Shown here: positions 36,122 through 63,895 of the stretch, piece by piece
Position numbering within the stretch: position 1 is the first letter of the stretch
Layout: each line of letters starts with the position of its first letter
Source: Morinoia aosen
Lineage: Eukaryota > Arthropoda > Malacostraca > Amphipoda > Talitridae
Direction of reading: 5' to 3'
Length of the DNA: 64,000 nucleotides
Assembly (NCBI GenBank): GCA_030386875.1
Contig: CM059563.1
Location: forward strand, 12,108,001-12,172,000
Program-made: the position numbers and the translations under genes
Notes under the pieces: generated by a model
What the model was told of the DNA's origin: nothing
The model's database searches: none
The model's input: only the letters and a program-made list of their open reading frames with translations

Positions 36122-36505
36122 ATGTTTCCAACTCCAACATTCTTGCCGCTGTTGCTTCTGTTAGTTACCTTGTCTGGAATTCTAAGCCAGCGTAGAAGCG
36201 ACCAAGAGACGGTTGAACTCCAAAGTACTTCTTACGACGAGGATGCGGGTTCTCCCCATCTGAAGGATGCCGAGAACAAGGGAGATGTTGTTATAGCCGA
36301 GACTGAAGGAAGTACACACCCAACTCCTTCAGCGCAGGCTGCATCGGACAGCACGAGAGAAAATGTCGCGCTAAAAAACCTCACTGCACAGATACCCACT
36401 GAGCAATGGACGAGTGAGGGCGATGGTAATGAAGGAAATATACAGTCGAGAATTGATGAATTTAATTCAGACAATAATGAAAGAAGTGGTAAAGTCTTGG
36501 CTTAC
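36122..36505 (+). CDS. SP1 exon 1, upstream part (signal peptide and acidic spacer)
   Basis: It encodes the signal peptide, then a spacer rich in Glu, Asp, Ser and Thr ending ERSGKVLAY. SP2 has ERTGKILAYY at the same place. As the sequence stands the frame ends at TAA 36506-36508, inside the insertion. Confidence 0.75.
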
Positions 36506-36743
36506 TAATTGTAAGAGACTGTTATCTCTTACAATTATCATTACATGTATTATCAAATGTAGATTAAGCTAGATTAGGAGTTCGTTGCCCTTAATCATTT
36601 CTTTTGACTAGTGACACGAGTTTTTCAATACTCGTGTGTGTGTATCATCTAAGTGTATTAATTTTAAGATATTTTAAAAACCAATGATGGTACTTTTGTA
36701 CCATCTCTATTGGAAATAAACCGTTTTTCTTTTTCTTCTTTCT
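36506..36743. mobile_element. 238-bp insertion in SP1 exon 1 with TTAC target duplication
   Basis: TTAC occurs at 36502-36505 and again at 36744-36747, directly flanking the insert. Removing insert plus one TTAC rejoins GKVLAY to YTTKTKN exactly as in SP2. The insert starts with a hairpin (ATTGTAAGAGA...TCTCTTACAAT), contains AATAAA and ends in a pyrimidine tract. A 4-bp duplication and internal poly(A) signal would fit a solo LTR, but TG/CA ends are not clear. A MITE or SINE is not excluded. Confidence 0.75.
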
Positions 36744-36747
36744 TTAC

Positions 36748-36899
36748 TATACGACAAAGACGAAAAACTTATTCGCAACGACCACCATATCAGTGCTGTT
36801 GACTTGTTTCTCCATGACCAACACGAACTCATGCACCGGCAGGCGCAAGAGGCGCAACATCAAAGAATTCATCGATGAAGCAGTGTTCGAAATGGAGAA
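36748..36899 (+). CDS. SP1 exon 1, downstream part (first Cys module and basic site)
   Basis: It encodes YTTKTKNLFATTTISVLLTC, then C-x8-C-T-G, RRKRRN and an acidic tail, ending GAGAA|GTATGC in phase 2. Splicing to 38007 yields NPEDLHGT, like SSEDLHGT in SP2. Confidence 0.82.
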
Positions 36900-38006
36900 G
36901 TATGCTTTCATTTAATTTTGTGAGATGCAAAATAATCACGAAGCTGTATTAATTTTTTTACGAATGCTTGAAAAAAGTTATAATCTAACGACTTAGTTTC
37001 AAACACAAAATTAAAATGAAGTAGTTTTCATTGAAATAATGTCCAAGGCTCGCACTACCTTCACAACATTGAATGGAATTTGATTATTGATTGAAATTAA
37101 TGATTAGTTTATAGATCAAGGATTAAATTCATAATAAACTCATTGATTAATGATTTAAACTAATGATTAGCTTATTACTTAATGCTTAAAATCAATGAAT
37201 AATAATTGCTTAATGATGAAAGTTGATGATTGACTTATTGTTCAGTCAAGAAAATGAATTTTTAGCTTATTGCTTAATGATTAGAATTCTAATGCTTGTG
37301 CATCCAGTAAATTAATCATGGTCGATATAATTACTTGTTTAGGCAGATGACATATATTTAGAAACAAGGAATGTTTCAATCAAAAATAACCAACAAAAAT
37401 TTTCTGAAACAGCCTTTTCACTATATGTGCTTCCAGCAATTCAAAAAACATTGATGGGAAATTTTTCTTCTAAGATACCGCAAATTAAAGCTCTTTGTAA
37501 AGTATTTCAAACTCATCGCCCAAATTCCAATGCTTTTAAGGTAATTACTTCTATCTGCTCTACTATTTTCCGTGCATGATCTTACAAATTCGCGGTCTGA
37601 GCTCATTCAGACAGAGCGAGGTTTTTTTTTAGGCATCCCTGATATTCCCAGTCTAACTTTTTCGCCGGAACATGCATGTTTTTCGCCACCCAAGTCATTA
37701 AATCGCTTGGGCGGCGAAAAAAATGCATGCCGGCGCCGAAAAATTTAGACTGGGTTGTGTCTCACCCTCTCTAGACATCCACTTAGTTTTATTTCTTGGT
37801 ACACTGCAGTGTGATTAATCTTTTTTCTTTTGTGTATTTCATCACATTAAATTTGAACCATAAATTTATCGTGTACGTACTTAAAAGCTATCAAGGTTAC
37901 CTGTATGAGTGATAGGAAATTTTGCAGCAGCGCTGTAAATATCAGGATTTTAACAAACAAACATCATTTGGAAACCCACTCCTGAACAAAATACTTTGCC
38001 TTGCAG
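36900..38006 (+). other. SP1 intron with AT-rich repeats and a palindrome
   Basis: It begins GTATGC and ends TGCCTTGCAG. It holds degenerate TTAATGATTAGTTTAT-type direct repeats (about 37080-37290) and the palindrome at 37647-37754. Confidence 0.75.
37647..37754. repeat. 108-bp palindrome (fold-back element)
   Basis: The arms start CCCAGTCTAA on both strands and pair over about 50 bp, including TTTTTCGCC, GCATG and CCCAAG, with a centre near TCATTAAAT. The terminal CCCAGTCTAA repeat suggests a small fold-back DNA transposon. The flanks both carry TT, too short to prove a target duplication. Confidence 0.75.
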
Positions 38007-38223
38007 CCCCGAGGACCTGCACGGAACAATCGTGGCCCCTGGCGACCCTGGGCTTGAAGAGGCGAGTCGGTTTGACCACAATCGGGACCCGAAGAGATTC
38101 ACGGTCTGGAGTACCCTGTTCAGCACGTTCACTCTCACCTCCACGTATTTCTTCCCCGGCACGACTGTGACCGTCAGCGCTCTCTGTGTGTACAACGGCT
38201 TGCCAAACACCTGCTTCGGGTGA
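38007..38223 (+). CDS. SP1 exon 2 (second Cys module)
   Basis: The acceptor is CTTGCAG, phase 2. It encodes PEDLHGT, an acidic stretch, DPKR, then FTVWSTLFSTFTLTSTYFFP, GTTVTVSALC and C-x8-C-F-G-stop (TGA 38221-38223). It is nearly identical to SP2 exon 2 in its second half, so selection has acted on it until recently. Confidence 0.88.
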
Positions 38224-38405
38224 AATCACGCTCGAGAATACTTTTCTGACAGATCTGAAAGTTTCTTCCACACAGATCACTTTCTGAGAAATTGCTACCT
38301 TATCCCTCAGATTTGTGAACCCTAACACTGAGCTGGGAATTTTTTCGACTGTTTCCATTCTCATCCCTTTTTGATTGTTGTTGCGCTGACTTTCATGTTA
38401 GTAAC

Positions 38406-38411
38406 AATAAA
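38406..38411 (+). terminator. poly(A) signal of SP1
   Basis: AATAAA lies 183 bp after the SP1 stop codon. Confidence 0.55.
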
Positions 38412-38663
38412 CGCTAACCAAACAACTTCGGAATTTACTTTCGTGAACATTTAAACATGATTAATAAAATGCCACTTCGAGTACAATTAAAACATTTTTG
38501 GCTCTTAGTTCAAACTGAAGTTTAAGAAATATTTTGGACACAAGTTCACGTTTCAAAAAATTTTAGAATCGAAATGTTTATCAGAATTTTAAAAATTGTG
38601 CTTCATAGAGCCTGCGTATACTCGCACTGTTGGCGTACTTGATCGAAGTATGTTTACGTTTTC

Positions 38664-38975
38664 AGATAACGTTTTATCGTCGTTAAAAGAGAAAAAGGAA
38701 AGAAAAATAGCAGCGTCATTGTTATTTACGACAAATGTCATCAGGAAAGTAAGGGGCATTGAGAGACAGAAAATCATTGGGAAAGTGAAGAGACTTGACA
38801 TCAGAAAATCATTGCGAAATGAGGAACGGGGGGACAGAAAATTATAAACATGAGAAGTGAGGAATTTGAAACCGAAAATCATTGCGCGAGTAAAGGACAA
38901 GAAAACAGAAAACCAAAGGGAAAGTGAGACGCGAGCGAAAGATAAAATCATCGGGAAAGAAGAGAAGATGAAAAA
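38664..38975. repeat. purine-rich degenerate tandem repeat
   Basis: The + strand is almost all purine, built from diverged copies of GACAGAAAATCATTGGGAAA followed by GTGAGG-like sequence, roughly 30-45 bp each. The long open frame on the opposite strand follows from this composition and is not considered a gene. Confidence 0.65.
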
Positions 38976-39845
38976 TAAAAACTAATTTGAGATCAGGAAT
39001 AATATTACAAGAAAATCTACACGGAATGAAGAAGTATACATGGTCTTCACATCATTTGAACATTTAACTATTCGATCAAATTTTTCTATGTCTTATATTT
39101 TCAAGAACATTTTGTAATAATTGAAGTATAACACAAATTTAAAACTCATTAGATTTAATGATGGTATTTCTTCGATCTTGTGTGTACTTTAAAAATGTTT
39201 GTGATACGCTGGAAAAAATTGAGCATCAAAATTAAAAGCTGTAAAACACATTAATAGTACAAAGCTTAAAGTTTTGATCAAATGTCGGCACTGAAAGCGT
39301 AGCTTCACAGTACTGTGAGTGAGCTCAGATCTGAGGTTCGGGGGGCTCTCCAGTATTAGTAAATTCTTGTGTAGAATAATTGGAATGCTCTCTTGGTTTA
39401 ATCCAACCCTCATGAGGTTACTGCGGTATGCCTATGTTGGTTTCCAATTAGTTTAGGATAAATATTATCAAGATGAGAGATTTAACTTTCAGATAAAAGG
39501 CGTGGGGGAAGCATTGAAAAATTAAGCACCTTTCATGAAATAATTCATCAATATCTTCCAAAATTATAATGAGTGAAACGAATGGTGAGACAAATGTTAT
39601 GCTGTGCTGTATGGACTTTCCAGCATTTTCTGAAAGAAAATCTAAAACAAGGCATGTTTCATTCTGACTGTATATCGTATATTGAATAAATCTGTGCTAA
39701 CTCCGTCGCAGAAATACTAACTCTCAACTGATTGGACCATAGTTTGATGTTTCTATGTAAAGACATATTTATTTCTCGCGCAGTATCGCAGGATGAAACC
39801 AGTAAATGTTACTCCGTAAATTAATCAAATTTTCACGTCTAAAAT

Positions 39846-41260
39846 ATGACCGACGCACTATCAAAATTAATCCCTTCGGTTATCAATAATAAAAACATCA
39901 ATTCCACAAACATAGACCAGACAGTATCAAACCTAATTTATGAGGTAAACAGTTTATTAAACACTGCATTCAATATGTGTTGCCCAATCATCACAGTTAC
40001 ACGGAAAAGACATGAAACTCTTTTATTACTTCAGGCATAATGTTAAAAACGTCAGATATTCCGACCATTACTGTATGGTGAAAAAAACAGCATCAATATC
40101 AGTGTTACGAAATTCAGGAATCGTGTACATCCAAGGAAAATTATAACCAAGGCAACCGATTTTACACCCAGATTGTTTTAATATGCCAATTTTTATGCGA
40201 CCAAACGTGTTATCTGTTCAATTACGTTAATAAGTCCTGAAATAATAGGTCAGGAAGGACTAAATTCTTTTCTCAAAAAATGAAATGAAACAAAAGGAAA
40301 AGTATTGTAAATTTCTTCAATTCTTTGTATTAACATCGGTAAAAAACCCAGCTGGAAGTTTTACTACTGATTCAACTCATCCCTTAATCTACGACTCGTA
40401 ACACATGACCAAGGAAGCATTTCTTGCTTTTTCATACGTGCTGATGACTCTGATATTCTTGTCTGCACAAACATTTCGAGAAAAGATGATCGTGGACAAA
40501 GTAGTCTCAGTAAAGTTATTGAAATATAAAGCTAATTCAAAATCTTCAGTCCTCGCAGACGTAATTCATCATTCTCTTTTCTTAGACATTTTTCAAGACT
40601 GTTTACAAATTATCTGCATAACTCCGGTTTTAATATGGTGTTAGAACAGGCGTACACAATTATAAACAAATTTCAGCCCCGTAATTTTATATTGAAATTT
40701 TCGATAAAATGGCCTCAAAGACTTGAAATCACCTTAAATGAAAATGATTTCTTTGCGTCTGGCAATAATATGGCTTCTAATCCAAAAGTTCGACAACGCA
40801 AGATTTAAATATTTAAATCCCCTCATCAATTTTAAAATAAGTATCGTGTCACTCCAAGTGTTTTCGAGTCTCGCAAAGCATTTGGTTTCTTGGATAAGGA
40901 ACGTTACTTTCAAAGCTCCACTGTCGTGGCTGACATTAAAGAATTGCTTCTAAAAGGTATAAATCATAACTAGAGAATATTAAACAATGCGTTGTTACTG
41001 GTAACACTTAATTAAGAATATATTATCCACGGAGTTCCTCAAGAATCTCTTCAGAGACCTTTCCTGTTCTATGCATTCAATCGTGTTCATCGTTGGTTTA
41101 AATGTATTCTTATTTCAAATTCATGTATTGCACTGACGGCAGTAACCTTTTTTCAATTCTATCTTATGAAAACGATATTCCAGTGACAGGTAATTAAAAT
41201 GAATAACGAACTGTAAAAAATTTCAACTAATCTCAAAGCTTATATGATGTTTTTAAATGT
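39846..41260 (+). pseudogene. decayed non-LTR retrotransposon reverse transcriptase
   Basis: Three reverse transcriptase blocks occur in the right order though not in one frame. FESRKAFGFLDKERYF at about 40863 matches the D-x-SKAFD block, with both Asp positions changed. GVPQESLQRPFLFYAFN at 41031 matches GVPQGSVLGPLLFLLF. YCTDGSNLFSI near 41126 stands where YADD should be. A 64-codon open frame at 39846-40040 (INSTNIDQTVSNLIYEVNSL) resembles the linker after the endonuclease of jockey/CR1-type elements. The element is dead; clade assignment is tentative. Confidence 0.72.
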
Positions 41261-41269
41261 AGATAAAAT

Positions 41270-44200
41270 TAGGTAGTGTGTTCACTAAAAGGCGGAAAGC
41301 ATCGCTTCCGTACATTAGGATTGGTGATGAGCTCAATTGAAAAATCTAACTCATCCAAATTCCAAAGAATTATCCTGAATAGAAATTCGATTTTCATAGA
41401 GCTTTCCTCACCTATTTGGATTGAGCTATCAAAATTAATTGAAATTCGTGATCTAACTTGAAATAAATTACCTGAATGAGCACCATATACATGGTGTAGA
41501 AGATTAATAATAATATTATAATCAATCAAAAAAAGAGGCTTGTAAGGGACGTACAAAAATTTACGAGAACAAAGATCTTTTTTACATTACGAGAAACCGC
41601 AATTTGAGGAAGAAAACCCTGGTACACAAAGCCAGCAGGAATAATTCGTCCATATACTACTTGGAAGATACGTACGCTTTCTGATCTCTACCAGCGTAAC
41701 TTTTGCCATTTTAGTCATAAAACTTTGTATAACAAAGGTGGTAAGGATATTACACAACTAACAACCGCTCAAACTGCCCATCACGATACCTGATTAGAAA
41801 CTGCAGTAAATTCATCCTGGTAAATTATTAAAAAATCCGACTTCAATTTAATTTCCATTTAATTGGAAATGAAGCTCACAATTTGGTGTATGCCTCAGTA
41901 ATATCCTCGGAAAAAAATCAAATGAGGGAGTCAATAGAAATCTTATGCCATATCTACGTTATGATGCATTAAACGGTTGGAAGCTTATTCTTTTTTTCTG
42001 CTGTACATGATTCAAAGAATAGACCAACTACTCTGAAGTAAAACTAATCGAATTCATAATCTAACGGGCTGTTCTCGCTCGACTCATACACATAATATTG
42101 ATGGTTGAATTATTTTAAATTCAGAGACGTAAATATTTTTCAATCAGTCTGGTGTAAATTTACGACGAGTGTTTTACGAGAAAAATAATAGCATACACTA
42201 GTCTGTTTCTCACCCTGTAATTGACCATGTACAGTACATGCAAGCTTTTCCACCTTTGTGATGTCAGTGTATTGACTACGAGGTTTAGAACAACCGGAAT
42301 TTCAGCTCGTGTGCCGAGTTAGCAAACGGCCGGAAAGAGCTCATTTGTCAACTTGATACTTCACGTCATGTGAGACACGATGGATTCAAAAAAATTATGA
42401 GCAACTTCCTACGAGGTCGTGAGTTTCGAGGTCGACTTGAAGATAGATTTGTCAACAGGCAGCAAATAAAATCACAAAAGCTCACTTGACATTAATATTC
42501 GATTATTAGCTATATTTGTCTTTGAACAATATAAAACAGAAAAAACGTAATTCCTATAACATGTTCAAGTAATCAAAATGTTTTCCTGACAATCTATTTC
42601 CCTATTATTCACATAATAACTTTATGCCCGAGAGCACTATATTAATTTTAGAGTCTGTACCTGTGCCATTCTAATGACTCGTTGAATGCATGCGAGTGGC
42701 TGAAGTAAGGCGCTACGACCACATGGAAATAATTGCAAATCTTTGAAAGTTCTCGTTCTCAACTTTTAGCAACTACAATTTTTTCTGTATAATTCTTCAT
42801 ATTTTTATACTTGTCTAAATTGTATAGTACGCGTATGGATTGAACAAATCGAGGATAATTGTTTACTTGTCATTATAGGAGTTTTAGCAAAGAAAATGAC
42901 CTAGCATGTCTCAGTTAGAAAAGGTAGACTGATAATAGCCACAAAAGTGGCGAATAAATGCAGCTTTAACAACAGAACACTTATTTCATTCTGTGTGCTG
43001 CGAGAACAAATATGTGTCATTTTTTCCTCCGCATTGAACTTACTTTATATGATGACGATTAGCGCTTTGAAACTATTTAGTGGAAATACTAATTATGAAC
43101 TTAAAATTTGCATGCACCATGAAAATTAACAAAATTGCTTAAGCTGATCCCATTTGCATTCAGTTCAACTATAATGTAACACAGAACAAACATGCGAGGA
43201 TGGGCCAGCGACCCCCACCGGTTTATAAGGTGCGTTTCCCAGATCGGGGCCACTTAGCTCCTCAATATCGGTACAGACGCACACGTCGGAGCTCTCGAGG
43301 GCAGTGCGTACCTACCTCTCACTCTGCCACTCGGTGTTGATGCTGCGCGGTGTCTGATTCGCTGACCAGGGTTGGTACTAAAGGCTTTATCGGTGTTGGA
43401 ATTCTTTGGGAGGTCGATGTAGTGAATTAGCTCGCTAAACAGTGATTTCTTTTCACTTCTAGGACCCAACAAAGCAATTTTTCGTTTTTCACCTAAACCT
43501 TCAGTTGACTTTGCTCAAACCGTCTCCAGAGGACGAATGGGCGTTTATGAAGACTTCATGGGGTGCTTACGTGTATCTTATGAACTAATTAAACATTTTC
43601 ATGAAATTTTGTACAAAAATCGTCAATCTGGCGTTCAATGAGGAAATGAAAAATTATGGCTGGCCATTCAGATAACGCTTAATTTTGTTAGATCCATTAC
43701 CATTATTAAAAGATGCAACAGATTTTCTTAATATTGAGTCTTAACAACATCAAATGAGAGCTTGGCCCTGAGCAAAAATTGGTCGCCTAGTTCTAGATAT
43801 AAATGAACAAAGGAGAGTCTATTTTTCCTTCGCACTTTTCCTGTATACTCGTCAATACTTTTCATGACTATCTTTTCGTCGCCCTGTAAGGGCAATTGCA
43901 TTAAAATATATAGATAGGGTTACAATTTTCTGTTCAAGTTCGTTTGTTTTTTAAACAGAAAATGTCTATTGCACTGTATTAGCAAATTTCTAAGCTAATT
44001 TAGCATTAAACGTCTATTAAGTTTACACATTTTTTGCAGCGACGAGATAGGAGCTAAACTTTATGGGGAAAGTATTTCTCTATATTATGAGTGAATATAT
44101 GTCTACATAAGAATATGACAAGGCCCATATATATGAGACTACACACTTTGATGCTTGTTTACTTGGTATGTTCGTCACTACAAACACACAGTAAACTAGA

Positions 44201-46900: not shown

Positions 46901-46944
46901 TCATGAGTTGCTGGTAATAGGATTCCTTATTTCTTCTGTCTACT

Positions 46945-48200: not shown

Positions 48201-48991
48201 ATGCTGTCATCTCACCCATGGGCGTGCCTGCTGCTACTGTGTGCGGTGGCCGCAGCACTGAGCAACGGGGCACTTCAGGAGGAACATAATGCGAATGCTA
48301 GGCAGGCAACTCGTCAGATCGCTCCAATACAATCGAAACCTGGGGAAGATCTGGTGGTGACAGACGGTAATGTGCATGGAAGTCGTGTAGATGCGATCAG
48401 TGCCAGGCCCGAAGAAAGTGTGGAATTTCTACATCGTACTGGAGACTCAGGAGTGAGTAGCAACGAAAGTGCTGTGGTGGAATCTGAACCTGTCTCACAG
48501 GGAGGGATAGACCAAGCCTCACAAGGGGAGGAAAGTTCAACCTCTGATAAGAAGGTTGCTCAAACCTTAGATGGAGAGGCAGGCTTAGCCCCACAAGGAA
48601 AAATTGGTTCAATCTCCTCAGGTGGAGAAATTTCAGACAAATTGGAAGGAGAAAATCCACCTGCCCAGGACAAGGTAAACTCAGGCTCACCAGTAGTGGA
48701 TGGAAGCGACGGGGAGATATCTGGTAGAGCGACAGCTAGTGACACCGAACAACTGCCTGAGTCTGCTGATACACCAGCAAAAGAAAGCTTCGGATTCTCT
48801 TCGGATGAAGATGAGAGAACCGGCAAAATTCTAGCTTATTACACCACCAAAACGAAGAACTTGTTCGCCACAACCACGATATCGCGTTTGTCCACCTGCT
48901 TCTCTGCGACCAACAGCGGCCCATGCCAAGGCAGGAGGAAGAAAAGGAACTTAGACAGAAGTATCGCTTCTGCAATCTTTGATTTGGACAG
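48201..48991 (+). CDS. SP2 exon 1
   Basis: Signal peptide, spacer, module 1 and the basic site. The donor is GACAG|GTAATT in phase 2. The first ATG is used because it starts the signal peptide directly. Confidence 0.9.
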
Positions 48992-50261
48992 GTAATTCCA
49001 ATATTACAGTACAAATTCTGTAAGCCGCATCAAAACAAATTCTAGCTGGAGATTTCACTTAGATGTTAAAAAATCGTTTTATACACTTTAATCGCAATTG
49101 GTTAGTCTAAAGTTTATTATTCAACTAAAATTTAAAGTTAGTAAGCAATTACGTAGTAAGCAATTTTTAAAGAAGAAAACATTAACTGGATCTTGCCTAC
49201 ATTTAGCTTTAATTAAGTATTTATGAAAATTGAGTTTGTGACAACTGGTCGATCAGCAACATTTTGAAAATTCCCTCCGTGCCCACCGGTGGCGCACGTA
49301 GCAGTCAAAGTCTTAATAATACTCGTACTATTCATGAGTTAAAGATATAATTAACAAACGAATACGAGAGACTTCTAGCATTGGACTATTTATAAGTTGT
49401 TGGCCCATTATTTTGAACATGACTAAATTCATTACTTATCTATATCACTATGAAATGCATTGCTATCAACTAACCAACTAACTAACTTCTTGAATGAGAC
49501 TGTACCCCACATGATTTTCTGGGATTTCATGGTGTGGAATGAATCCTTCAGAATTTATTTCAGGAAATAATTTTAGAAATGTTTCCCGATCTGACTTTAT
49601 TGCGGTATTGGACTCCAGACGAACCATCTCCACGCTTTTCAAGTTGGCTTCTATTTTTGGCAAATTAAAGATAACCCTTGAGTCGGCTGTAAATTTTCCC
49701 ATTGAAATGAGAATCAATATGCATGTAATTTTTTCTCCTCTTTTGGGATCTAGCCACGATTAATTTCCAGGAGCTACATGTATTCTACATTAAGAAGTAC
49801 ATTGCATAGGACCACCAGCCACTGTTTCTGTTTTCACTTCCCACACATGTGCAGCGGGCAGATATAAAATATGATTATGGGGAATTCACTACTCATTGTA
49901 AAGTACATTGAAACGCATTCAAGCCAACATTTACGTGATAATTCACTACTCATTGTAACGCATCCAGACCAACATTTGTGGCCGTCATAGCACAATTAAA
50001 ATCACTAGAGACACAAAATTTTCAGTAAGCGATTCTCATTTCAGCTCGGAGGACCTGCACGGCACCGCCGAGGACACTGTCGACCCAAGTTTTGAAAGTG
50101 GGAACCAGGCGAGAGGCGACCGCGACCCGAAGAAGTTCACGGTGTGGAGCACATTGTTCAGTACCTTCACCCTCACCTCGACCTACTACTACCCGGGCAC
50201 GACGGTCACCGTCAGCGGTGTGTGTGTCCTCCCTGGCTTTGGCAGCGGTTGCTTTGGCTAA
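48201..50261 (+). CDS. SP2: two-module secreted protein, intact (335 aa)
   Basis: Exons 48201-48991 and 50045-50261 join in phase 2 to 335 codons plus TAA. Residues 1-22 form a signal peptide (MLSSHPWACLLLLCAVAAAL). Residues 23-205 are a low-complexity Ser/Gly/Glu/Asp/Gln spacer with weak repeats such as QGGIDQASQGEESST. Residues 206-244 are module 1: YYTTKTKNLFATTTISRLST, then Cys233-x8-Cys242-Q-G. RRKKR follows at 245-249. Exon 2 adds an acidic linker, DPKK (291-294), then module 2 from F295 to the end: FTVWSTLFSTFTLTSTYYYP, GTTVTVSGVC and Cys324-x8-Cys333-F-G-stop. Secretion and cleavage at the basic sites are inferred. Function unknown; I recall similar C-x-G-RRRR proteins only as uncharacterised arthropod sequences. 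Confidence 0.9.
48992..50044 (+). other. SP2 intron
   Basis: GTAATT to CATTTCAG. It contains the repeat shared with 46945-47075. Near 49885-49985 a roughly 50-bp ATTCACTACTCATTGTAA unit is tandemly duplicated. The final 115 bp recur at about 51060-51150. Confidence 0.75.
50045..50261 (+). CDS. SP2 exon 2
   Basis: Acidic linker SSEDLHGT..., dibasic DPKK and module 2, ending C-x8-C-F-G and TAA. It is the same length as SP1 exon 2 (217 bp). Confidence 0.9.
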
Positions 50262-51059: not shown

Positions 51060-51150
51060 CACAATGCGACAACACATCCAGGCCAACATTTACGGCCGTC
51101 ATGGTACAAATAAAATCACTCTAGATATGAAATTTTCAGTAAGCGATTCG
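51060..51150. repeat. copy of the SP2 intron end without exon 2
   Basis: ACATCCAGGCCAACATTTAC, GGCCGTCAT and TTTTCAGTAAGCGATTC match 49960-50035, which leads directly into SP2 exon 2. After the match no exon 2 sequence follows. This is a relic of a tandem duplication of roughly 1.1 kb. Confidence 0.75.
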
Positions 51151-52790: not shown

Positions 52791-53199
52791 AGATTGATGA
52801 GGGAACACGCAGGATTTCGAATGAACGTCGAGTGGTATGAGATGTTGCACCGTCTTGGAGCCGTAGAACTTCAAGATCGGCAAGGAATTCGACGAGTTTT
52901 GTCATCGATAACACTCAAGTGTTTCACAGTAACGAATTCCAGATGCCTAAATCTTCCACGGTACGCCAGGTAGTGTACCCTGATCGTTGGTGTCATTCAC
53001 CAGAACAGTATTGAAAGATTTGTTTATTAATCATTCCCGTCAAATGGAAAGTTTGCTGAAAATCACTGCAAATCGGAATTCCTGCTCTGTGAATGCTCTA
53101 GATCTTGTCCCAACCCAATGCTGTGCAGGTTTCACAATCTCTCTCACCCAATTCCTGTACACTAGAATTGCATTTAATGCGCTTTAGAGTGATATAAGA

Positions 53200-54430
53200 T
53201 ATTTTTTTAAATAATTGCTGGCTTTTTTTCAAAAACCTTTGACGCAGCCGCTACATCCTAGCTCGACCCTACATGAGAGCCTTGATCGAAAAGATCCCTG
53301 GCGGTTTAGTATTGTATGAAATTAAAGCTGCAGTCGTTTAAACCATCTCAAAATATTGAGTAACTTGATGATTTGAGAGTCGATATATCTAGGCTCAAAA
53401 TGCTTTACGAGCACAAACGAAATGAACGAAGAATAACCGACGTTTTGATTTATTATTCGCTTTAAGGTTATTGGTGTGACTGAATTTGTGTATTAGGGCT
53501 AATTGTAGAAATGCCGTTAGTGATACGCTAGGATTTCAGTGGTGTTTAACGCATGTTATGGTTCCAGCAGAAGATTTTTTGCTTTGTTAGCACTGCAACC
53601 ATTTGCTGTAAACATGCTCAGAAGAGCAAATTTCATCTTCAGTCAGAGGAGGTGATATGCTGAAAACAAAACTAATCTGACACCGAATAACTCAAACTCG
53701 CATCCTTGTCTTGATTTTCAATGACAACTGCTCCTTTCGAACTGAAAGTTAATGTTTTAATGACGACCGTTGTACACGGACTATAAATAAATGTTTCAAT
53801 AAAAACTTCAACGAAAAATGCTGGAAGCGGAGTATAAGTTAGATATTGATGTCAGAAAATCGAACAGAGAATTTGGATGTGGTGCAGTGGATATATTTTA
53901 ATTTATTTTCACGATGCTTTAGAAAAATAGTAAAGGCTTATTTTTTACTTCAAAGTTTTACAAAGCATTAGAAATAGAGAATCTTGAGTAGCAATGCAAA
54001 AATTTTGCTAAAATTTATTTTTTAGAATATTTCTCTATTGTTATTTGAAGAGAAAGAAACGTAATATTTTACACTCTGCACAATGCTGAAACGCTACTCA
54101 TGCACACTATTTGAAACTAAATATTCCAGAAGAGAATTAATGAAAAAAATGAACCATGCTGGAGTAAGAAAGTATCTTTCCTTGCGCTTTTCTTACGCAT
54201 AATCAAATTTCTGTGAGCAGAAATTGAGCAAATAGAGCTGGTCCTGTATACACTAGGAATGTATTAACCTATTTATATCATAGCTTAATTAGCTTTCGAG
54301 TTTGGTCACAAACAGAAGGTTTTTAATAATTGTTAATTTTTTAATTCCCTTCCTGGTTGAAAGCAGCGATGTCATTAACTAAGCTCCAAAGTGTACACTA
54401 AACTTATTATCGGAAAGAGAAAAATAAAAG
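53200..54430. other. intergenic, nothing recognised
   Basis: AT-rich DNA; no open frame or repeat worth naming was seen. Confidence 0.6.
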
Positions 54431-54463
54431 TCATTGTTTTTAATATTTTCCCATGCCAAGGCT

Positions 54464-54700
54464 TCAGTCCAGCGCACAACAACTAAAGTCGAAGTTATTC
54501 TAAAAGAATTTCCTAGCGACCTTTCATGCGCACACTGCTTCTGGAAAGGAAGAAAATTGGAACGCCTCAGGGAATCTGAGAAGGAAAAATTACGTCTGCG
54601 AGTGTTAGAAAAAGCCTTGAGACGTTCTTCTCAACTCCACAGCTGCCTGAGCATCATCAGCGTCAAGACAAGGAGCGAACCAGTCGTCAACAGGAACTAG
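54464..54700 (+). CDS. possible divergent SP-family exon or orphan terminal exon
   Basis: An open frame from near 54464 (after possible acceptors CATGCCAAG or GGCTTCAG) runs to TAG at 54698-54700. TTTKVEVILKEFPSDLSC lines up without gaps with TTTKLALQTCWSTSDMPC of SP3: the TTTK, SD and final Cys match. A basic GRK and a charged, helix-forming Glu/Lys/Arg/Leu-rich stretch follow. Its place between SP2 and SP3 on the same strand agrees. The match is short and no signal peptide is present, so it may equally be a relic or an unrelated exon. Confidence 0.3.
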   Translation, partial: SVQRTTTKVEVILKEFPSDLSCAHCFWKGRKLERLRESEKEKLRLRVLEKALRRSSQLHSCLSIISVKTRSEPVVNRN

Positions 54701-56041
54701 CCTTGAAAATTTTTGTATAGTTTAATCATCTCGATTGCAGCATCTTGATAAAGTAAATGTACATGTTAAGGTAAGTCATAACATAACTCGTATGTTAATG
54801 ACGGGGGACATCCCAGTGTGTTTAGGTCATGTGTTATGATAATTTGGATCAAATGCATTTTTTATGATGAGTGTGCCAGACTATTTGAACATTGATGAGT
54901 CTTTACGAAAATTGAAAGAAAATTTCTCAAAGCCTCTTGTTTATTTCAAGAATTTTATTCATCTATTTTAACTTAAATACATACTCACTCTGAAGTCAAA
55001 TTGTTCAGAGTTACACGCGCCTCAGATATACAGAACATTGTATCATTCACTGTAATAATGTTTAACTTAGGGTTTTTGCTCACAGCCGTGATTGAAATAC
55101 AATCGGCCACTTTAGGGAGAAACAACTGTTCTATTGATGGGATTTAGCACTCCCAGGGAGAAGTTGTTAGGTTTTCAGCTGAAGGTTGGGTAAGACTTCC
55201 TTTATAGAAAAAGAATGGGTTTTCCGTTCCGCTACGGATCAACTTTTTTTCAGAACAGTACACTGCTATCTTTTTCAAAACCTACGTATTACCTTCTTCT
55301 TTGATTTTTACCTTCTTACAAAAACTACCTTCATAACTTAAAATTTTAGTAGCAGAGACCCCTTGGATGGTATGGGTAGGCAATAGGTTTAGGTTAGTTA
55401 AATACGTTAATCCTGTGCTATGGAGGCTAGTGAACCTAGGGGAGATACTGTTACGTTACCTCAGCTGCAGATAGGTATTTGAGACTTCTAGCTTTCGAGC
55501 CCACTTTTCTTCTTTCAGTTTTCATGCTTTCTTTGCTTTCTCCTCCTAGTCTCTCCTTCCTCTTCCTTGCTAATATTCCGTCTCCATGCGCAGGGTATAC
55601 TGTATGGGAACTCATCTTGGGCTTAATTCCTCCATTTCCATTACTCTATACTTAATGGTCTCTTCCCTTTCTCTTGCAGAAAATCTTTGCAACGAAAATG
55701 GAACCGTAAATGAGCTACCATACTATGCGCGGGAAATCATGTGGGGGAACACACCTTTTGCATAGATTACTGGCTCCATTTGTTTCATGTAAAATTATAT
55801 CTTCCTCCCACCTCATTTGAGCACATTTTTGTTGAAGTTAGGGAGGCTAAAACTAACTAATGATTTACTCAAATGCAATTGGAATGACGTAAAGTAAGAG
55901 TCATTTTCAGAATGCTAGATAAAATTCACCCGCTAGTCCGGTGTCCAAGTACGAGAATGATGGTTGGTTTTCCATTATGCACTGTGTCGCTCTATGTTGC
56001 AACTCACTCTTTCCCATCTGGAATATCATATCCAAGTTGAA

Positions 56042-56049
56042 CTTTATAT
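56042..56049 (+). promoter_or_regulatory. possible TATA box of SP3
   Basis: A TTTATATG motif lies about 65 bp before the chosen ATG, a spacing similar to that at SP2. Confidence 0.3.
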
Positions 56050-56110
56050 GCATATGGAGCAAAATGTTTTTCCGACATTCAAGGCATCTTTAATTTCATG
56101 TTTCAGACAG

Positions 56111-56358
56111 ATGATGTATGCCGCACTACTTTTGCTCCTCCTTGGCTTAGGCCACGGAGCTAAAGCTTCCAAGTCCGACATCATTCTGAGCAACAGGGAA
56201 TCCAAATTGCTAGCGATTTTTGCCAGCACGACCGTGACGAAAGTGACGACCACCACCAAGTTGGCCCTGCAGACCTGCTGGTCCACCAGCGATATGCCGT
56301 GCAGTGGGCGCCGCAAGAGGCGGTCGCTCTTTGGTCCTCAGGCTGCTGCCGCTGCGGG
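56111..56358 (+). CDS. SP3 exon 1
   Basis: Signal peptide, module 1 and the basic site, then an Ala run ending GCGGG|GTGAGT in phase 2. Confidence 0.86.
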
Positions 56359-57972
56359 GTGAGTTTGCTTGATGCGAGTTGGCTTTAGGAGCAAGAAGGG
56401 AAATCTGGTACTTTTCGTCATGCGAAGAATACTGTAAAATTTGATGGGGAATTTACTTGATGGAAAGTGCAGGTCTGAGGAAGAATGATGGGAAATCAGG
56501 TCTTAATTGTATTGAGAAGAATACTACACAATTAAATGGTGATTCTACCAGATGAAAAGAGCTGTCATGAGAGAAATCAAGTCTAAAGCGTTTTGGGAAA
56601 AATACTGTTAAATCTGATGGTGAGTTCAGCCTTGGGGAAGCGAGAAGGTCAATTCGCTCCTTATCGTAATAAGGACAATACTGGAAAATTTAATGGTGAA
56701 TGTGCTTGATAAAAGGTCTTGCATTGGAAGGTGTGGAGGTAAAGAAGTGTGGAGGTAAACGGGATTCTGCAAAACTTTAAATAGGGAAATATTAACTGTG
56801 TTTATAAAATTAAATCTATTTAAAACTACATTGCAAAACCGGTGCAGTTCGTGTGTGGAGCTTTATCTATTTTCCTAACATCGCAAACATTACGGCGATT
56901 AAATCATGTATATTTCACGTGATGATCGAACATCAGAGCTGGGTGGAACAGTGTTTTCTAAATGAACATATTTAGCAACTGTATCAAAACATTTTATTAT
57001 TGTAACCCATACAGCTAACGCACTGTCTCCAGTTTTATTTTAATTTATTTTCGAGTGTTAAAATCGAGGTTCTTGTGCCTTTCAATTTGGCCTGAGTCGT
57101 GGATTTCAAGTTTACTTACAAATCCGTTCCACTTCATTTACTCACTCAAATCCATTCTCAATGCGCTGTTTTCAACGAAAGTTCATCAAAATTTGAAAAA
57201 TTGAGTTGTCCTGAAATTATTTTTGGGTTGTCTTGTACTTTTCCTGCCACGTTTCATCTACTCAGTAGTGCCACTCACACACCTGCTCTCTGCGCTGTTC
57301 TAATTTAATCAATTAGATTCATCGTTGATTCACTGTTAGCATTAATTTAAACTTTGGAATAAAATGGATATTGTTGAAGCTCTAATAATTCATTACAAGG
57401 GAACAAATTCGGTCTGAATATTGGATATTATCGTAATATTCATTTTCCCTCTGTATTTTAGTTCTTTCAATGATTATTCTCAGCTTTTTAATTTTTAACT
57501 CCCTAAAAACTAATCTTTAAATTGAAATTAATTCGTTTTCAAATATTCCCAATAACCGTTAAAGAACTCTAACGGCTGTTGTAATACTTCCAAAAATTCA
57601 TCTTCTTCTACAATACTTTTGAGCATCATATCAGCAATAAAAACATTAGAAAGCCACAAACATTCGCATGCTCGTAGTTAGTGAACAGCTCGCAAGAACT
57701 ACAGGAAATGATACATAATAAATAATCAATTCATATTTTTTGCGCGCGTCAGAGCCATAGGTTCAGACGTGCAGCTGGACGCAAGCATGGAGCCCTCACT
57801 TGCTACCGACGAGTCCCAAGACGTGGACGAACGGAAGGGCCGCAAGCTGACCATTTGGACTACAGGCTTCACGACTGTGACGATCACAACCACTTCGTAC
57901 TATGAGGGGACCACGGTGTCTGTCTCAGCCCTGTGCACGTTGACTGGCATGGGGCAGTCCTGTTTTGGATAA
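56111..57972 (+). CDS. SP3: short two-module secreted protein, intact (155 aa)
   Basis: Exons 56111-56358 and 57753-57972 join in phase 2 to 155 codons plus TAA. The start is the ATG ATG after ACAG, which gives a clean signal peptide (MMYAALLLLLLGLGHGAKA); an in-frame ATG at 55964 would bury it. There is almost no spacer. Module 1 is STTVTKVTTTTKLALQTC with Cys56-x7-Cys64-S-G, then RRKRR. After an Ala-rich stretch, exon 2 gives an acidic linker, GRK, then LTIWTTGFTTVTITTTSYY, GTTVSVSALC and Cys144-x8-Cys153-F-G-stop. It keeps the two-module plan of SP2 at half the length, so the long spacer is dispensable. Function unknown. Confidence 0.88.
56359..57752 (+). other. SP3 intron
   Basis: GTGAGT to GCGCGTCAG. 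In 56390-56780 there are diverged direct repeats of the type AATACTGTAAAATTTGATGG and GGTGAATT, spaced roughly 80-90 bp apart. The rest is AT-rich. Confidence 0.7.
57753..57972 (+). CDS. SP3 exon 2
   Basis: Acidic linker, GRK and module 2 ending SCFG and TAA (57970-57972); 220 bp against 217 in SP1 and SP2. Confidence 0.88.
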
Positions 57973-57979
57973 GTTTCGA

Positions 57980-60900
57980 GTCTTGTGTTGGCTGTCTTGG
58001 TATTTCTGTTTCGGCTTGGTTAAGACAATGGGGTTCTCAAATGAATTTTTTTTCGATACCAGCTTATAAACTTGTGAATGCGTTGTTGCAGTTCCTCGAT
58101 TTGAAAGAAATAGCATAAACATTCGGCACATACTTTGATTTATTTTTGCAAAAGTTTCCCAACATTACAAAAAAATGCTTTATTCACTTTATTCTTCAAT
58201 GGTGTATTATTATTTCGAAACGTAATCTCAGTAAAACACTTTTCTTTAGACCTCAACTATAACGTCCGGACGGGCTCGAAACTGGCTCACGAATTGGCAT
58301 AAACGTAAATTTCATGGTTAACTACAAGAAAACAAGCACGATCAGGGCTCTGAATGCCTCATAACGTTACCCGTGTTTTGGCTTCACAGCCGCTTAATTC
58401 TCGGTCGTCGTCTCTGGAGGTAGGGTTCCAAAGGTGCAGGGTAATGAGAGCAAAAAATTTATCGCACAGCCAGCATTGAATCGTCTTTCTTTGTCAATGT
58501 TCTGCATCAGGAGCTGCCTTCATATTTTTCTGAACATCACAGATTTCTTGACGGGCTAACGGCTACTACGGAATGAGGAATTTTGTTCTGAATCTTGTCC
58601 CTGCCTTAACATGGCATACTTTCGTCAAAACACAACATATATAAGCATGAGAAATTAATAGCTCTTTTTGCATCACAATGGTAACAAATAACTTTGAAAT
58701 AAAGTGCAAATGCATTCATATATACCTATTTAACTTTAATTTCTTGGTACTCGGCCCAGTCATGAAGTTAACACCTAAGAGTCGAATATTTTTTATTGAA
58801 ACTTTCAGAGAATATGACGGGAAAAACTGGTCACTTATTTCGAATTTTAATAGGATTGTTTATGCTATGGCATTCGTCATCAGATTATGTTCATCTAGCT
58901 TCTCAATAATTAGAAGTAAAGTACACCACACAACACTATTAAATTTAATTTAAAATCCACAGCGCCAGCAGAATATTTATCACTCTCTGTACCTGCCTCT
59001 AACATTTAAAAAACACTCTCGTGAGCGCAACACTTTGCTTAAAATAACAATCACTACACGCGTGAAAACTGCGTAAGGATCAAAGAGATTATGTCATTAA
59101 TGAACAGTTGAGTGTCATTTTAGAAAGTTTTGCATATTGCTTGGCATTCAAAATGAAAATCTTTGACGTTATAGATATCATAAATGACTCGAAATAGATG
59201 CCCTAAGTCGAAATTTTTACTGTTTTTTAACATTTCAAATGCAGTATTTTAGGGTCAGGTAATTTTGTGATTACCATTGACACGATATAGTTGACGTCTC
59301 GAAACACTTCATTGCAATTCATTCTCTAAGCGATAGAATCTCAAGAAGAAACATTTTTCCTTGATGAGTTAAGTTAGTTAGAGAGCAAATTAATTTTAAT
59401 GATATTCCTTAATTTGTTTAATAAGTTGGATCAGAATATTTCTTGTGATGTAATCCTTGTACCAAACTTGTAAATAAACGAAATAATTCTCAACCGTCGT
59501 TTCAAATGCACGAAGATGATAGTGAAGCAATGTAATATGATGCAATACGAAACAATGTAATACAGTGCATAGTAGGAGGCTTCACGCGGTAAAATTTACC
59601 TGTTGAAAAATTAATCTAAAATTGAGTTACCTTTACTATGGCATTAGTTCTTGTTGATTCAGTTATAGGACCGAAATGATCATTGAACATGACTTAGATA
59701 TTTTAGCAAGATTGAACTGTACGGCAAATCATATTTATGCCTCCAAAAATTTTTAATAAGTTGTTAAAAACGATTTCGATTAAAAGAAAAAAGAAACCCT
59801 TCAGATTTTAACATTGCGACATACAGGGTCCCATAAGAAACTCGACCTGATGAATAAATTTTAATAAAAAAAGCTGCGAAACGTTATGAGTTCGGAAGAA
59901 TTTAAAACGACACTGACAAATTCGAAATTTTATTCAAATGTTAAGTATGGAATACAATGTGTTCTTCAAACCAGCTAGTACTCTCTTCACGGTACTCCTC
60001 ATTATTTTACTTGATATTAAACTCTAAACTTTTCTGAAGATGTTGCGTTTCCATTCGAGTAAGGTATCAGATTTATTTATGCGAGCTCTTTTCTTAAAGT
60101 ATCCTCACAAGAAATAAAAACGAGCTTTCAAACCTGAAGATCGAATCACCATAAGCATAAAATTATAAGGCATTAAAAAATTGTTTTAATTGTTGTATGA
60201 GGCGTACTTCATCAAACAAAATCGTGAAGGTGTTATACTAAAAAACCGTAAATTACGTAATAACCGTTATTATACCAAATAACCGTAGGTGTTATTCCAA
60301 ATAACCGTATAACTCTAATTCACCATACTGTAACTTTACTTGAGTTAAGGGGATGCTGATGTATTCTTTCATTTATTATTGTTAATTTAAGTCATAAATT
60401 CTTAGTGAATAAATTAATTGGTCTGTCTAGAGTGCGACTTGGTTCAGTGTGGTGAGTTAAGCATAATTGTGTAGCATAGATGCCTTCAGATATTTTCACT
60501 CCGATAATCTTGAGGAACAATCTTTTTGATGTATTACTTGCGGTTAATAAATTTCTTAAATTGTTAAGAAAAAGTTAAGTTATTCAAATAGTATTACATT
60601 CTCTGGTATTACTAATTTCTCTGAATCTTAAATTTTACTCATTAGCTTCTATCTTTAGGTGAAAGTAAGCATCAACAGATATGATTATGTTCCATTTGGA
60701 GTCTTCATTTTCCATAAGACGCAGAAATTTGCTTGGAAAATTTTTCTACATTTGATAGCTCTCAAATTGGAGCTCTTGCGTCAGTTACTCGAATCACTCA
60801 CACTTCTAAGAACTTAAAATTTTATTTATGAATTTAAAATTTCACTCATCATTATAAATTATCTTGCCCTCTTTATATTTCTTAATTTTTGCCAAATCCA

Positions 60901-63120
60901 TTTTCAAGAAGGATGAGTTATTTATGTGCCGCGCTAAAGGAGTAAAAGTTGTAAAAATAACTTAATTATCTAATGAGATAAGTTCTCTTAATAGAAGCAG
61001 ACTGATAAATAATTAAAGTTATGCCTCTCCTTATCTCTCCCTCTCTTTCCTTCTTGAAAGACTCAACTAACTAGAAAACAGAGTAATCACAACACAAAAA
61101 CGCTCATCATCAGCTTGATTTGCCATAAATTTTCTTAGATATGATTGTTAAAATCTACATAGCTCATACATTTCATGGGCAAATGAAATCTTCGTGCTAT
61201 TCATTGAGCTATTGAAACTTTTACGTATGGTGAATGACCACAGAAACACAGTTCCAGCAACAGCTTATATCGACCGCGCAACCGACGCGTTTTATTCCCT
61301 AGTACAATAATACAGTGTTTGTTTACATGTCATAATACACCTGTCTCTTCACGACCATGTAGTCTCATTTTGTAAACTGAATGCCTGACTACTAGATAAT
61401 CGTGGCAAATTATTGTTTTTGAATTATAATTTATTTTCATCGATTCAAATTTTGTCTAAAAGTATCCTAACACAAACACCACCGAAAGATAAAATGACGC
61501 TAAGTTTAAACAAGACTATATAAATTTTCCAGCAATGGGTTATAGATTTAATTTATTTTGAAATAATTTGTAATGTTTCAAGTATAATCACTCTAGTTGA
61601 AAAGAAAAGATGCGTGCGGATCCAGATTAGCTACCAACAAGGAAAACCCAACAATTACTCTCGACCTTTCCTGCCCTAAACACAATTAATAAAAGCAGCT
61701 ATCGTCCTATAAGAGATTCAGAGCAATCTTTCATCTCGAGGTAGGCGTGCTGTGGTGCGAGAGGTGGATCATTTGCTAAAGAAAATAGTTCTAGTCTCTC
61801 ATTACTCATTGAATATCTGCGTTACAGTAGGTAATTTTTCAATATGGGTCCTAAAAGAATAATAACTCTCACAACATGGGATGGATTTTAAAAGCAAAGC
61901 ATTTATTCTATCCTGAGAAATACTAGCTTCATTTTGACATTTTTTAATACAATATTCTTCTTGTGTTGCTTTCCTGAGCGCAGACAAGAAAAGGCACGAT
62001 TACGCACGCTATTCAATATAGGACACTGGTGAGATTTGGGGCAATTCACTAAATTTCTACCTCGATGTTTACGCTCAGGAGGGCGGTACACTGATATTTT
62101 TATTTAAAAAAAGCAATCAAAATATAGTTAGCATTTCTTAGAATTGAATAAATTATTTGTTTTTCAAAGTTTATCCGATATTATGGGAGTTATCAAAGAA
62201 ACTTTTAAGAACCAAATTTGAAACACACGCTGTATTTGATTAAATTTCTAACAGGAGGCATAAATTTCTAACGGTAGAATTTTATGAGGAATTTTTCCTG
62301 AAATTTTTTGAGGCATTCAAACGACATGAGTTGAGAATATTCACAGAGTTCATGTTGAAAAGGCATTCTACTCAAACGGGTTAACTTCAACTTTAATTAA
62401 ACGTATGCACCTTCAGGAAAAACTGCTTGAGTTGTTTGTGATCAACGAAGCAGGGGATTTACTAGTATTTCCAGACAATGGAGTGAAGAGAATTTTTTGA
62501 GAGCGAAGTGAGATGCTTCAGGAGCGAGATTCATTCGAAGAGCCCACACGAAGAAGAGAACCTCAATTTCAAAGTTTATTGCCACAGCATGCGAACAATA
62601 TTCAGCTGAAACGTCACTCTTCTGCTTCAATCTGAAAAATATTAAAAAATTGTCTCGGATTAACATGCATGGTGTTTTTCAAATTAATGAGCCTTGACTT
62701 CATGGAGTGAAAATATTCGATGCTCCAACGAGTAAATTACGCTCAGCGATAATACCTAATAAGAAACTCTGTCATGATGGGAAAGTTTTGCTGTACATAT
62801 CTGAGTAAGAGATTAAAACATACTCAACACTGCTGTGCAAATTTCCCCGTAAGTTCTTATGTTACTTTATGAAGTGTAGAAATAAGACAAAGTTCAGTCA
62901 CTCATGCATTCCTAAAATGTTAGCCATTAATTAGCATTTCCCGAAATCGGGTTTTTACCTAACTCTAATTCGGGTTTCGTTTCCTAATTATTTCTATGAA
63001 TAATTTCTGGTACGTAGGGAAATTTTCATTAGGAGTAATTCCCGTGCGTGAAAAATGCTTGGTCTTTAAGGTTCTCTATCATTGAAAAAAATTGAATAAC
63101 TTATTGCCTGTTTGTGGCAC
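57980..63120. other. 5.1-kb intergenic region, no supported gene
   Basis: AT-rich DNA. Near 60240-60310 there is a short cluster of AAATAACCGTA repeats. Open frames at 58678-58953 and on the minus strand at 61802-62091 and 62442-62666 show no recognised domain. Confidence 0.6.
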
Positions 63121-63128
63121 ACGATGTG

Positions 63129-63136
63129 ATATAAAA
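63129..63136 (+). promoter_or_regulatory. possible TATA box of SP4
   Basis: ATATAAAA lies about 170 bp before the SP4 ATG, farther than at SP2 and SP3, which would give a 5' leader of about 140 nt. Confidence 0.3.
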
Positions 63137-63302
63137 GTTCTAGCTTTCACGCTAGAGCGCTGAATTAAGAGCTTTCGCTTCATTTAATTTTTTGACAAAA
63201 CTATTTTATGTTCAATCGAAAATAACCACCCCATCCTTTCCAACAGAAAAAAGGCATAATAAAAAAGCTGTGACAGAGGACGCATACTGAGGGATTTTCA
63301 TC

Positions 63303-63895
63303 ATGAGTTTCAATAAGTTGCACATTGGAATATCTGTGCTGCTGACAGCAATGCTCACAAGTGTATCAATTGAAGCTCTTGAGCATCGCAATACAAACGC
63401 CAAATTTACACCAAGCATCGGCAACGAAGGCTCTCATCAAAACGTCTCCCACGCACAGGCAGAAATGAACCTCGCTGAACATGCTGTTGTCTCTGACGCG
63501 CTGGACATTTCTGTTACAGAAACAATCCCCACTCCTCACTCAGAAATAAAACTTAATCCCACCATCGGTGTTACGCGCAATGAAGTTGTAAAAATCAAAC
63601 ACAGCCTAGCTGTAGAAACAAACCACAGTATTGTATCAGAAATAAAATATAACTTTCCCTCAAACGTTTCAAAGGCAATGAACGCGCGCACAGGCAAGGC
63701 TTCAGAAGCCCTGGAGGAAGATGCGCATCAGCTGTTGAGGGACGCTCGTGTCCTGGCGTACAGGACTTCGACGTCGCGCACCTTCATTGCCTCCAGCACT
63801 GTGGCGGCTCTGAGCACGTGCATCACCGCCGTCAACCCCACGCCTTGTATCGGGCGGCGCAGGAGAAAAGCGATTCACCAACTCCCCCTGTTTTT
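63303..63895 (+). CDS. SP4 exon 1: two-module secreted protein, 3' part outside window
   Basis: It starts with a signal peptide (MSFNKLHIGISVLLTAMLTS). A spacer of about 120 residues with three possible N-glycosylation sites (NVS, NHS, NVS) follows. Module 1 reads ARVLAYRTSTSRTFIASSTV, then Cys173-x8-Cys182-I-G, RRRRK. The donor CTGTTTTT|GTAAGA is in phase 2, as in SP1-SP3. Unspliced reading would stop at TAA 63897-63899. VLAY is the same lead-in as in SP1 and SP2. Exon 2 should lie right of the window. Confidence 0.85.

What the first reader, a model, noticed from the sequence alone, without database searches (positions are those of the whole stretch)
36122..63895. Tandem family of secreted proteins with two homologous C-x8-C-x-G modules
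Four loci on one strand share signal peptide, module 1, basic run, phase 2 intron and (in the three that are complete) module 2. Both modules are Thr/Ser-rich, beta-prone, and end in two Cys spaced by 7-8 residues plus x-G: CQG, CTG, CSG and CIG in module 1, CFG in all three exon 2 copies. In module 1 the Gly is followed by RRKKR-type sites; in module 2 it is the last residue. That suggests one ancestral unit duplicated into two exons, each made as a precursor ending in Gly. I know of no named function.
Basis: partly seen in the sequence, partly recalled or inferred. Interest (0 to 1): 0.8.

Follow-up and report, generated by a model that had tools for sequence, protein, structure and literature searches.

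The report
Tandem genes for two-module secreted peptides
An animal genome, probably an arthropod's, carries a row of four related genes for secreted proteins that each look built to be cut into two short, threonine-rich, cysteine-looped peptides; the family is real in this window, one copy is broken by an insertion, and what the peptides do is unknown.

Summary
The family is real. Four + strand loci (A 36122, B 48201, C 56111, D 63303) encode an N-terminal hydrophobic stretch, a Thr/Ser-rich module ending C-x7/8-C-x-G plus five basic residues, and a phase 2 donor. A, B and C also have an exon 2 ending C-x8-C-F-G-stop. Each held-out module is recovered from the six-frame window by a profile of the others (E 2.8e-6 to 2.3e-28). 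Between A and B the modules are conserved and the spacers loose.

Corrections: locus A is not complete. A 236-base insert with a 6-base target duplication (36508-36743) puts a stop inside module 1. Only B and C are intact; D runs off the window.

Homology of module 1 with module 2 is not established: hhalign E 0.04-0.07; shuffles that keep the ends reach the score in 29-61 of 1000.

Best reading: a secreted precursor cut at basic sites into two peptides, each with one Cys loop and a terminal Gly that could be amidated. Module 2 is almost uncharged, so a self-assembling matrix role is a serious rival. No Pfam match above cut-off, no credible PDB sequence relative. No eukaryote collection could be searched: novelty outside the window is untested.

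The parts
36122..36508 (+). Locus A, 5' part of exon 1: signal-like N terminus, linker, RSGK site and the first four residues of module 1 (VLAY), then an in-frame stop at 36506-36508 brought by the insert
36508..36743 (.). 236-base insert in locus A, flanked by the direct repeat TTACTA (36502-36507 and 36744-36749); starts with a short inverted repeat and ends in a pyrimidine-rich tail after GGAAATAAACC; retroposon-like (inference); no good second copy in the window
36748..36899 (+). Locus A, rest of module 1 (36748-36840), basic run RRKRR (36841-36855), 14-residue tail, phase 2 donor AA|GTATGC
38007..38223 (+). Locus A exon 2; module 2 at 38098-38220 ending TCFG, then stop
48201..48991 (+). 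Locus B exon 1: signal-like N terminus, acidic linker of about 185 residues, RTGK site, module 1 (48828-48932), RRKKR (48933-48947), tail, phase 2 donor AG|GTAATT
50045..50261 (+). Locus B exon 2 after a 1053-base intron; module 2 at 50136-50258 ending GCFG, then stop; protein of 335 aa
56111..56358 (+). Locus C exon 1: signal-like N terminus, linker of about 13 residues including the RESK site, module 1 (56207-56308), RRKRR (56309-56323), tail, phase 2 donor GG|GTGAGT
57753..57972 (+). Locus C exon 2 after a 1394-base intron; module 2 at 57847-57969 ending SCFG, then stop; protein of 155 aa
63303..63895 (+). Locus D exon 1: signal-like N terminus, linker, RDAR site, module 1 (63750-63854), RRRRK (63855-63869), phase 2 donor TT|GTAAGA; exon 2, if there is one, lies beyond the window

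Best explanation
Each gene makes a secreted precursor that proprotein convertases cut at the basic sites bounding the modules (RxxK/R before module 1, RRKKR-type after it, KR/KK/RK before module 2). This frees two peptides of about 35 and 41 residues. Each peptide is beta-prone, carries its only two cysteines near the C terminus (a likely disulfide loop of 7-8 residues), and ends in Gly, either after trimming of the basic residues (module 1) or directly at the stop (module 2), so each could be amidated. The linkers and the 8-14-residue tail of exon 1 are spacers. Shown here: gene structure on paper, motif, constraint on the modules, and Cys confined to the modules outside the signal peptide. 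Inferred: secretion, splicing, cutting, disulfide, amidation and beta structure. The peptides' target is not known; I take a secreted peptide (signal or defence) as somewhat more likely than a pure matrix role.
For: Leave-one-out family E-values. All four loci start with a hydrophobic stretch (best 8-residue hydropathy 3.29, 3.27, 3.30 and 2.36 in A, B, C, D, against 0.91, 2.18, 2.12 and 2.14 further on in the same piece). Outside the signal peptide the only cysteines are the two in each module. A-B dN/dS by counting: module 2 0.166/1.26, module 1 0.22/2.6, against the exon 2 spacer 0.56/0.72 and exon 1 tail 0.683/0.74, so the modules are kept and the linkers drift. The linker before module 1 is about 13 residues in C and about 185 in B, so its length seems not to matter. 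Basic sites bound the modules, and Gly precedes the basic run in 4 of 4 module 1 copies and the stop in 3 of 3 module 2 copies. In module 2, A and B are identical from residue 32 to 47 of exon 2, and the 8 places where C differs are all odd-numbered while the 8 even ones are invariant (T, W, T, F, T, T, T, T), the pattern of one conserved face of a strand; 1 in 12870 by chance for that split, though the stretch was chosen after seeing it.
Against: No expression or peptide data. P1 is Lys, not Arg, before module 1 in A, B and C (RSGK, RTGK, RESK), a weak convertase site (recalled knowledge). The paralogues share ancestry, so the repeated Gly counts as one or two independent events, not seven. 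Module 2 has 0 charged residues in A and B and 1 in C, unusual for a circulating peptide. In D the first hydrophobic stretch is barely above the next best (2.36 against 2.14), and no signal-peptide predictor was run. Predicted structures are poor (mean pLDDT 55.8 and 53.2) and module 1 came out helical. Thr-x-Thr spacing is not above composition shuffles in any of the 7 modules (P 0.16-0.82).
Confidence: 0.45

Rival explanations
1. A structural, self-assembling secreted protein: uncharged Thr/aromatic beta-strands stack into sheets, and the Cys pairs cross-link chains in an extracellular matrix (cuticle, egg coat, cement or silk-like material). Convertase cutting would only trigger assembly, and the terminal Gly would be structural.
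For: One conserved strand face. Low-confidence three-strand sheet.
Against: Modules are short (34-41 residues) and occur twice per protein, not in long arrays; the B linker is acidic (net charge -21); the Gly sits exactly before the basic run or the stop in every copy.
Confidence: 0.3
2. An antimicrobial or other secreted defence peptide family: tandem copies with divergent linkers and a cleavable precursor.
For: Tandem old duplicates (module dS above 1 or saturated for all scored pairs), signal-like N terminus, possible cleavage sites.
Against: The modules are not strongly cationic (B module 1 net +3, B module 2 net 0), and two cysteines each is few for defensin-type families (recalled). No pair shows dN above dS in a module.
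Confidence: 0.1
3. Module 1 and module 2 are not homologous: two unrelated Thr-rich secreted segments that converged on a Cys pair plus Gly at a processing end. (A rival to the reader's duplication claim, not to the precursor reading.)
For: hhalign E 0.04-0.07; ends-kept shuffles reach the score in 61 of 1000 (local) and 29 of 1000 (global); loop P 0.83, upstream stretch P 0.055; predicted structures disagree (both weak).
Against: Full column shuffles reach the score in only 12 of 2000 (local) and 0 of 2000 (global); both modules start after RxxK/R and end C-x(7,8)-C-x-G; in the joint alignment the T-T-V of module 2 lies over T-T-I in A and B, S-T-V in D and T-T-K in C.
Confidence: 0.5

Closest known systems
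C-type allatostatins, above all AST-CCC (SYWKQCAFNAVSCFamide; PMC6008092, passages read)
   Same: Arthropod peptide with one disulfide near the C terminus; Cys-Phe end with amide; [quoted passage not shown]
   Different: The loop is C-x6-C there against C-x7/8-C here; AST-CCC has 14 residues, here 34-41 and Thr-rich; no AFN/YFN core in the loop here. The resemblance is limited to Cys-Phe-(Gly) at the end and may be chance.
Unnamed Thr-rich secreted proteins of pancrustaceans with a Cys pair followed by a basic run (recalled from general knowledge, from no call)
   Same: As recalled: signal peptide, Thr-rich stretch, two Cys and an RRRR-type site.
   Different: Could not be compared; no eukaryote sequence collection was on hand.
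Barnacle cement proteins with silk homology (PMC5099703, title and start of abstract in the search listing only)
   Same: Per the listing: secreted cement proteins that form nanoscale fibres; relevant only to the structural rival.
   Different: No sequence comparison made; whether they have a two-module, cleavable plan was not looked up.

Membership tests
C-type allatostatin family | C-x6-C loop at the C terminus with Phe after the second Cys | tested here: not met
   Loops are C-x8-C (C-x7-C in C module 1); Phe follows the second Cys in module 2 only; loop of the three Homarus peptides from PMC6008092 passages.
C-type allatostatin family | AFN/YFN core inside the loop (as in the three Homarus peptides) | tested here: not met
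   Loop sequences show no such core.
Amidated secretory peptide precursors (prohormones) | N-terminal signal peptide | tested here: met
   Met on hydropathy and small residues at candidate cut sites in all four, narrowly in D; no dedicated signal-peptide predictor was run.
Amidated secretory peptide precursors (prohormones) | Gly followed by basic residues or by the stop at the peptide end | tested here: met
   4 of 4 module 1 copies and 3 of 3 module 2 copies.
Amidated secretory peptide precursors (prohormones) | Convertase cutting and amidation actually occur | not testable with these tools
   Needs peptidomics.
Any Pfam, NCBIfam or PHROGs family | Score above the curated cut-off (Pfam, NCBIfam) or any listed match (PHROGs) | tested here: not met
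   Pfam: 3 weak matches, all under cut-off (E 0.03-0.13), among 5 pieces; NCBIfam 0 for 2 proteins; PHROGs 0 for 3 pieces. NCBIfam and PHROGs cover prokaryotes and their viruses, so only Pfam weighs much.
Solved structures (PDB) | Sequence match to a solved chain | tested here: not met
   B exon 2: 2 polyester hydrolase chains at E 0.084. Module 2 profile: designed repeat toroids at 3.3e-8, 8.2e-7 and 0.026, summed over 12-residue repeats with 0 stretches passing on their own, which I take as an artefact of repetition; then nothing under 2.8. Module 1 profile: one chain at 0.3. One search was in a wrong frame and is void.
Solved structures (PDB) | Fold match | tested here: inconclusive
   Foldseek on the weak module 2 model: best E 0.16, 0 of 579 at 0.001 or better; module 1 model not searched.

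The most novel reading that the evidence does not exclude
A hitherto unnamed arthropod family of secreted precursors that arose by internal duplication of one beta-strand/Cys-loop unit across a phase 2 intron, each unit released as an amidated, almost uncharged beta-peptide unlike known peptide hormones.
Probability: 0.17. Interest if true: 0.6.

Novelty: new variant of a known kind. Interest (0 to 1): 0.4.

Why it matters
If the modules are released and amidated they would be a group of secreted peptides with an odd, nearly uncharged beta character that Pfam does not cover. If they assemble instead, they would be a compact, convertase-triggered matrix building block. Either way the tandem cluster, with one copy broken by an insert, offers a natural test of which copies are needed.

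Tried and rejected
Looked for further copies: six-frame profile searches with all filters off found no other convincing copy in 64 kb. The best extra for module 1, 61238-61372 (+), lies between E 0.015 and 0.15 in the five profiles run, lacks the Gly and the basic run, and is left as a possible decayed fragment (translation). DNA similarity between loci is confined to exons: only two A-B matches, at module 1 and exon 2, pass E 1e-3 among the six pairs of loci, so the duplications look old. Looked for relatives outside the window: viral contigs with both module alignments and genome contigs with module 2 gave no confirmed relative. These collections are viral and prokaryotic, so this says little about an animal gene.

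Considered whether the insert in A is spliced out as an intron: the strong donor-like GTAAGAG lies after the stop codon, and the first AG after the pyrimidine tail does not keep the frame with the better upstream donor-like site (read by eye from the sequence; no splice predictor was run). I judge A disrupted, not certainly dead: its downstream pieces have no stop, and its module 2 has low dN/dS against B.

Structure route: the module 1 model (a helix, pTM 0.21) is disregarded; the 50 best listed PDB matches of the module 2 model are 49 metallo-beta-lactamase chains and one other protein, at E 0.16 or worse.

Literature: eight searches (some searches listed only part of the papers found) showed no paper that I recognised from title and abstract start as describing this family. 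The motif searches can only hit letters printed in a text, so this is weak evidence of absence from print. Passages of two papers were read (PMC6008092; PMC4696782, not used further).
Full report
What is there. Four + strand loci share one plan: an N-terminal hydrophobic stretch; a linker of very different length (about 13 residues in C, about 185 in B); an R-x-x-[KR] site; a Thr/Ser-rich module of 34-35 residues ending C-x8-C-x-G (C-x7-C-x-G in C); five basic residues; a tail of 8-14 residues; and a phase 2 donor. A, B and C have, after introns of 1107, 1053 and 1394 bases (from the coordinates), an exon 2 with a spacer, a basic pair (KR, KK, RK), a 41-residue module ending C-x8-C-F-G, and the stop. 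B encodes 335 and C 155 residues. D runs off the window shortly after its donor.

More than chance. The module 1 ending occurs 4 times in the six frames, against none in 200 Markov sequences; the module 2 ending occurs 3 times, against a mean of 0.115 and a maximum of 2. Because a profile built from all copies finds them by construction, I also left each copy out in turn: all 7 held-out modules (4 of module 1, 3 of module 2) were recovered, E 2.8e-6 to 2.3e-28, with the next window match at 0.016 or worse.

Constraint. Simple counting of substitutions gives for A against B: module 2 dN 0.166, dS 1.26 (45 codons); module 1 dN 0.22, dS 2.6 (36 codons, A only from its second piece); exon 2 spacer dN 0.56, dS 0.72 (26 codons); exon 1 tail dN 0.683, dS 0.74 (14 codons). 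In the other module pairs dN is 0.48-0.75 and dS 1.27 or more, or saturated, so their ratios are less certain. The modules are the kept part.

Locus A is broken. Compared with B, the reading frame of A stops inside module 1 (stop 36506-36508) and the module resumes at 36748. The 236 bases between (36508-36743) are flanked by TTACTA on both sides, start with a short inverted repeat, and end in a pyrimidine-rich tail after GGAAATAAACC; I infer a retroposon-like insertion. No good second copy lies in the window (best 32 bases at 84%, which searched 232 of the 236 bases). So of the three loci with both exons, two are intact (B and C).

Are the modules one unit twice? It is not significant: hhalign E 0.041 global and 0.07 local. 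The module 2 profile finds the frame of B's exon 1 only at E 1.3 with all copies in the model, and at 0.4 and 0.52 when A or B is left out. Shuffling module 2 columns: 12 of 2000 reach the observed local sum and 0 of 2000 the global sum; keeping the two ends fixed, 61 of 1000 and 29 of 1000. Anchored at the first Cys, the 18 residues upstream give P 0.055, the loop 0.83. The resemblance is thus mostly the shared ends. It may be homology or the common demand of a processed Cys-loop peptide; I put the two at about even odds.

Structure. AlphaFold2 on 3 sequences gives module 2 as strands 29-37, 40-49, 52-61 and 68-70 (mean pLDDT 55.8; blocks of residues 41-60 at 71-74). On 4 sequences it gives module 1 as a helix at pTM 0.21, which I disregard. 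Foldseek against the PDB finds nothing below E 0.16 for module 2; the module 1 model was not searched. A sequence-level hint of strand structure in module 2 is that from residue 32 to 47 all 8 differences between A/B and C fall on odd positions and the 8 even ones are invariant; the stretch was picked after seeing it. Thr-x-Thr spacing is not above composition shuffles in any of 7 modules, which speaks against a strong claim.

How it most likely works. Secretion, cutting at the basic sites, formation of a small C-terminal disulfide loop, and possibly amidation at the terminal Gly, giving two peptides per precursor. Shown: architecture, constraint, and Cys only in the modules outside the signal peptide. 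Inferred: every processing step. The near absence of charge in module 2 (0, 0 and 1 charged residues) makes self-assembly into a matrix the main rival.

Known families. No Pfam match above cut-off among 5 pieces; none in NCBIfam (2 proteins) or PHROGs (3 pieces), two libraries of little weight for an animal gene. PDB sequences: B exon 2 matches two polyester hydrolase chains at E 0.084; the module 2 profile matches designed repeat toroids (best 3.3e-8) only as a sum over repeated 12-residue stretches, none of which passes alone, and nothing else under 2.8; the module 1 profile has one match at 0.3. I count none of these as a relative. One search, in a wrong frame, is void. The nearest named peptides by end structure are C-type allatostatins, especially SYWKQCAFNAVSCFamide (PMC6008092, passages), but their loop is C-x6-C with a different core, so membership fails. 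I recall unnamed Thr-rich crustacean proteins with a Cys pair and a basic run; this comes from no call.

Setting. Upstream on the same strand lie exons of an ionotropic glutamate receptor (Pfam Lig_chan at 16063-16347, E 1.1e-7, and 21845-21991, E 3.4e-19; Lig_chan-Glu_bd at 7746-8063, E 7.6e-8; a sub-threshold Lig_chan match at 26843-27145, E 0.056) and a mariner-type HTH fragment at 23097-23417 (HTH_48, E 5.3e-21). That fits an animal.

Noticed in passing
36508-36743: 236-base insert with 6-base target duplication and pyrimidine-rich tail, interrupting module 1 of locus A.
   Followed up: yes
49957-50035 and 51071-51149: 79 bases at the end of B's intron, just before the exon 2 acceptor, recur at 85% identity 1114 bases downstream without a module 2 exon after them.
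   Followed up: partly
61238-61372: Weak module 1-like frame between C and D (E 0.015-0.15), without Gly and basic run; perhaps a decayed fragment.
   Followed up: partly
7449-27145: Exons of an ionotropic glutamate receptor on the + strand, with the motif GFCVDL at 7449, QQGSD at 16321 and SYTANLA at 21887.
   Followed up: partly
23097-23417: Mariner-type transposase HTH fragment (HTH_48), between glutamate receptor exons.
   Followed up: no
13794-13999 and 684-875: Two long inverted repeats (68 bases at 91% and 54 bases at 93%, 70 and 84 bases between the arms), hairpin-type elements.
   Followed up: no
37080-37282: Degenerate tandem array of a 32-base unit (6.4 copies) inside the intron of locus A.
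   Followed up: no
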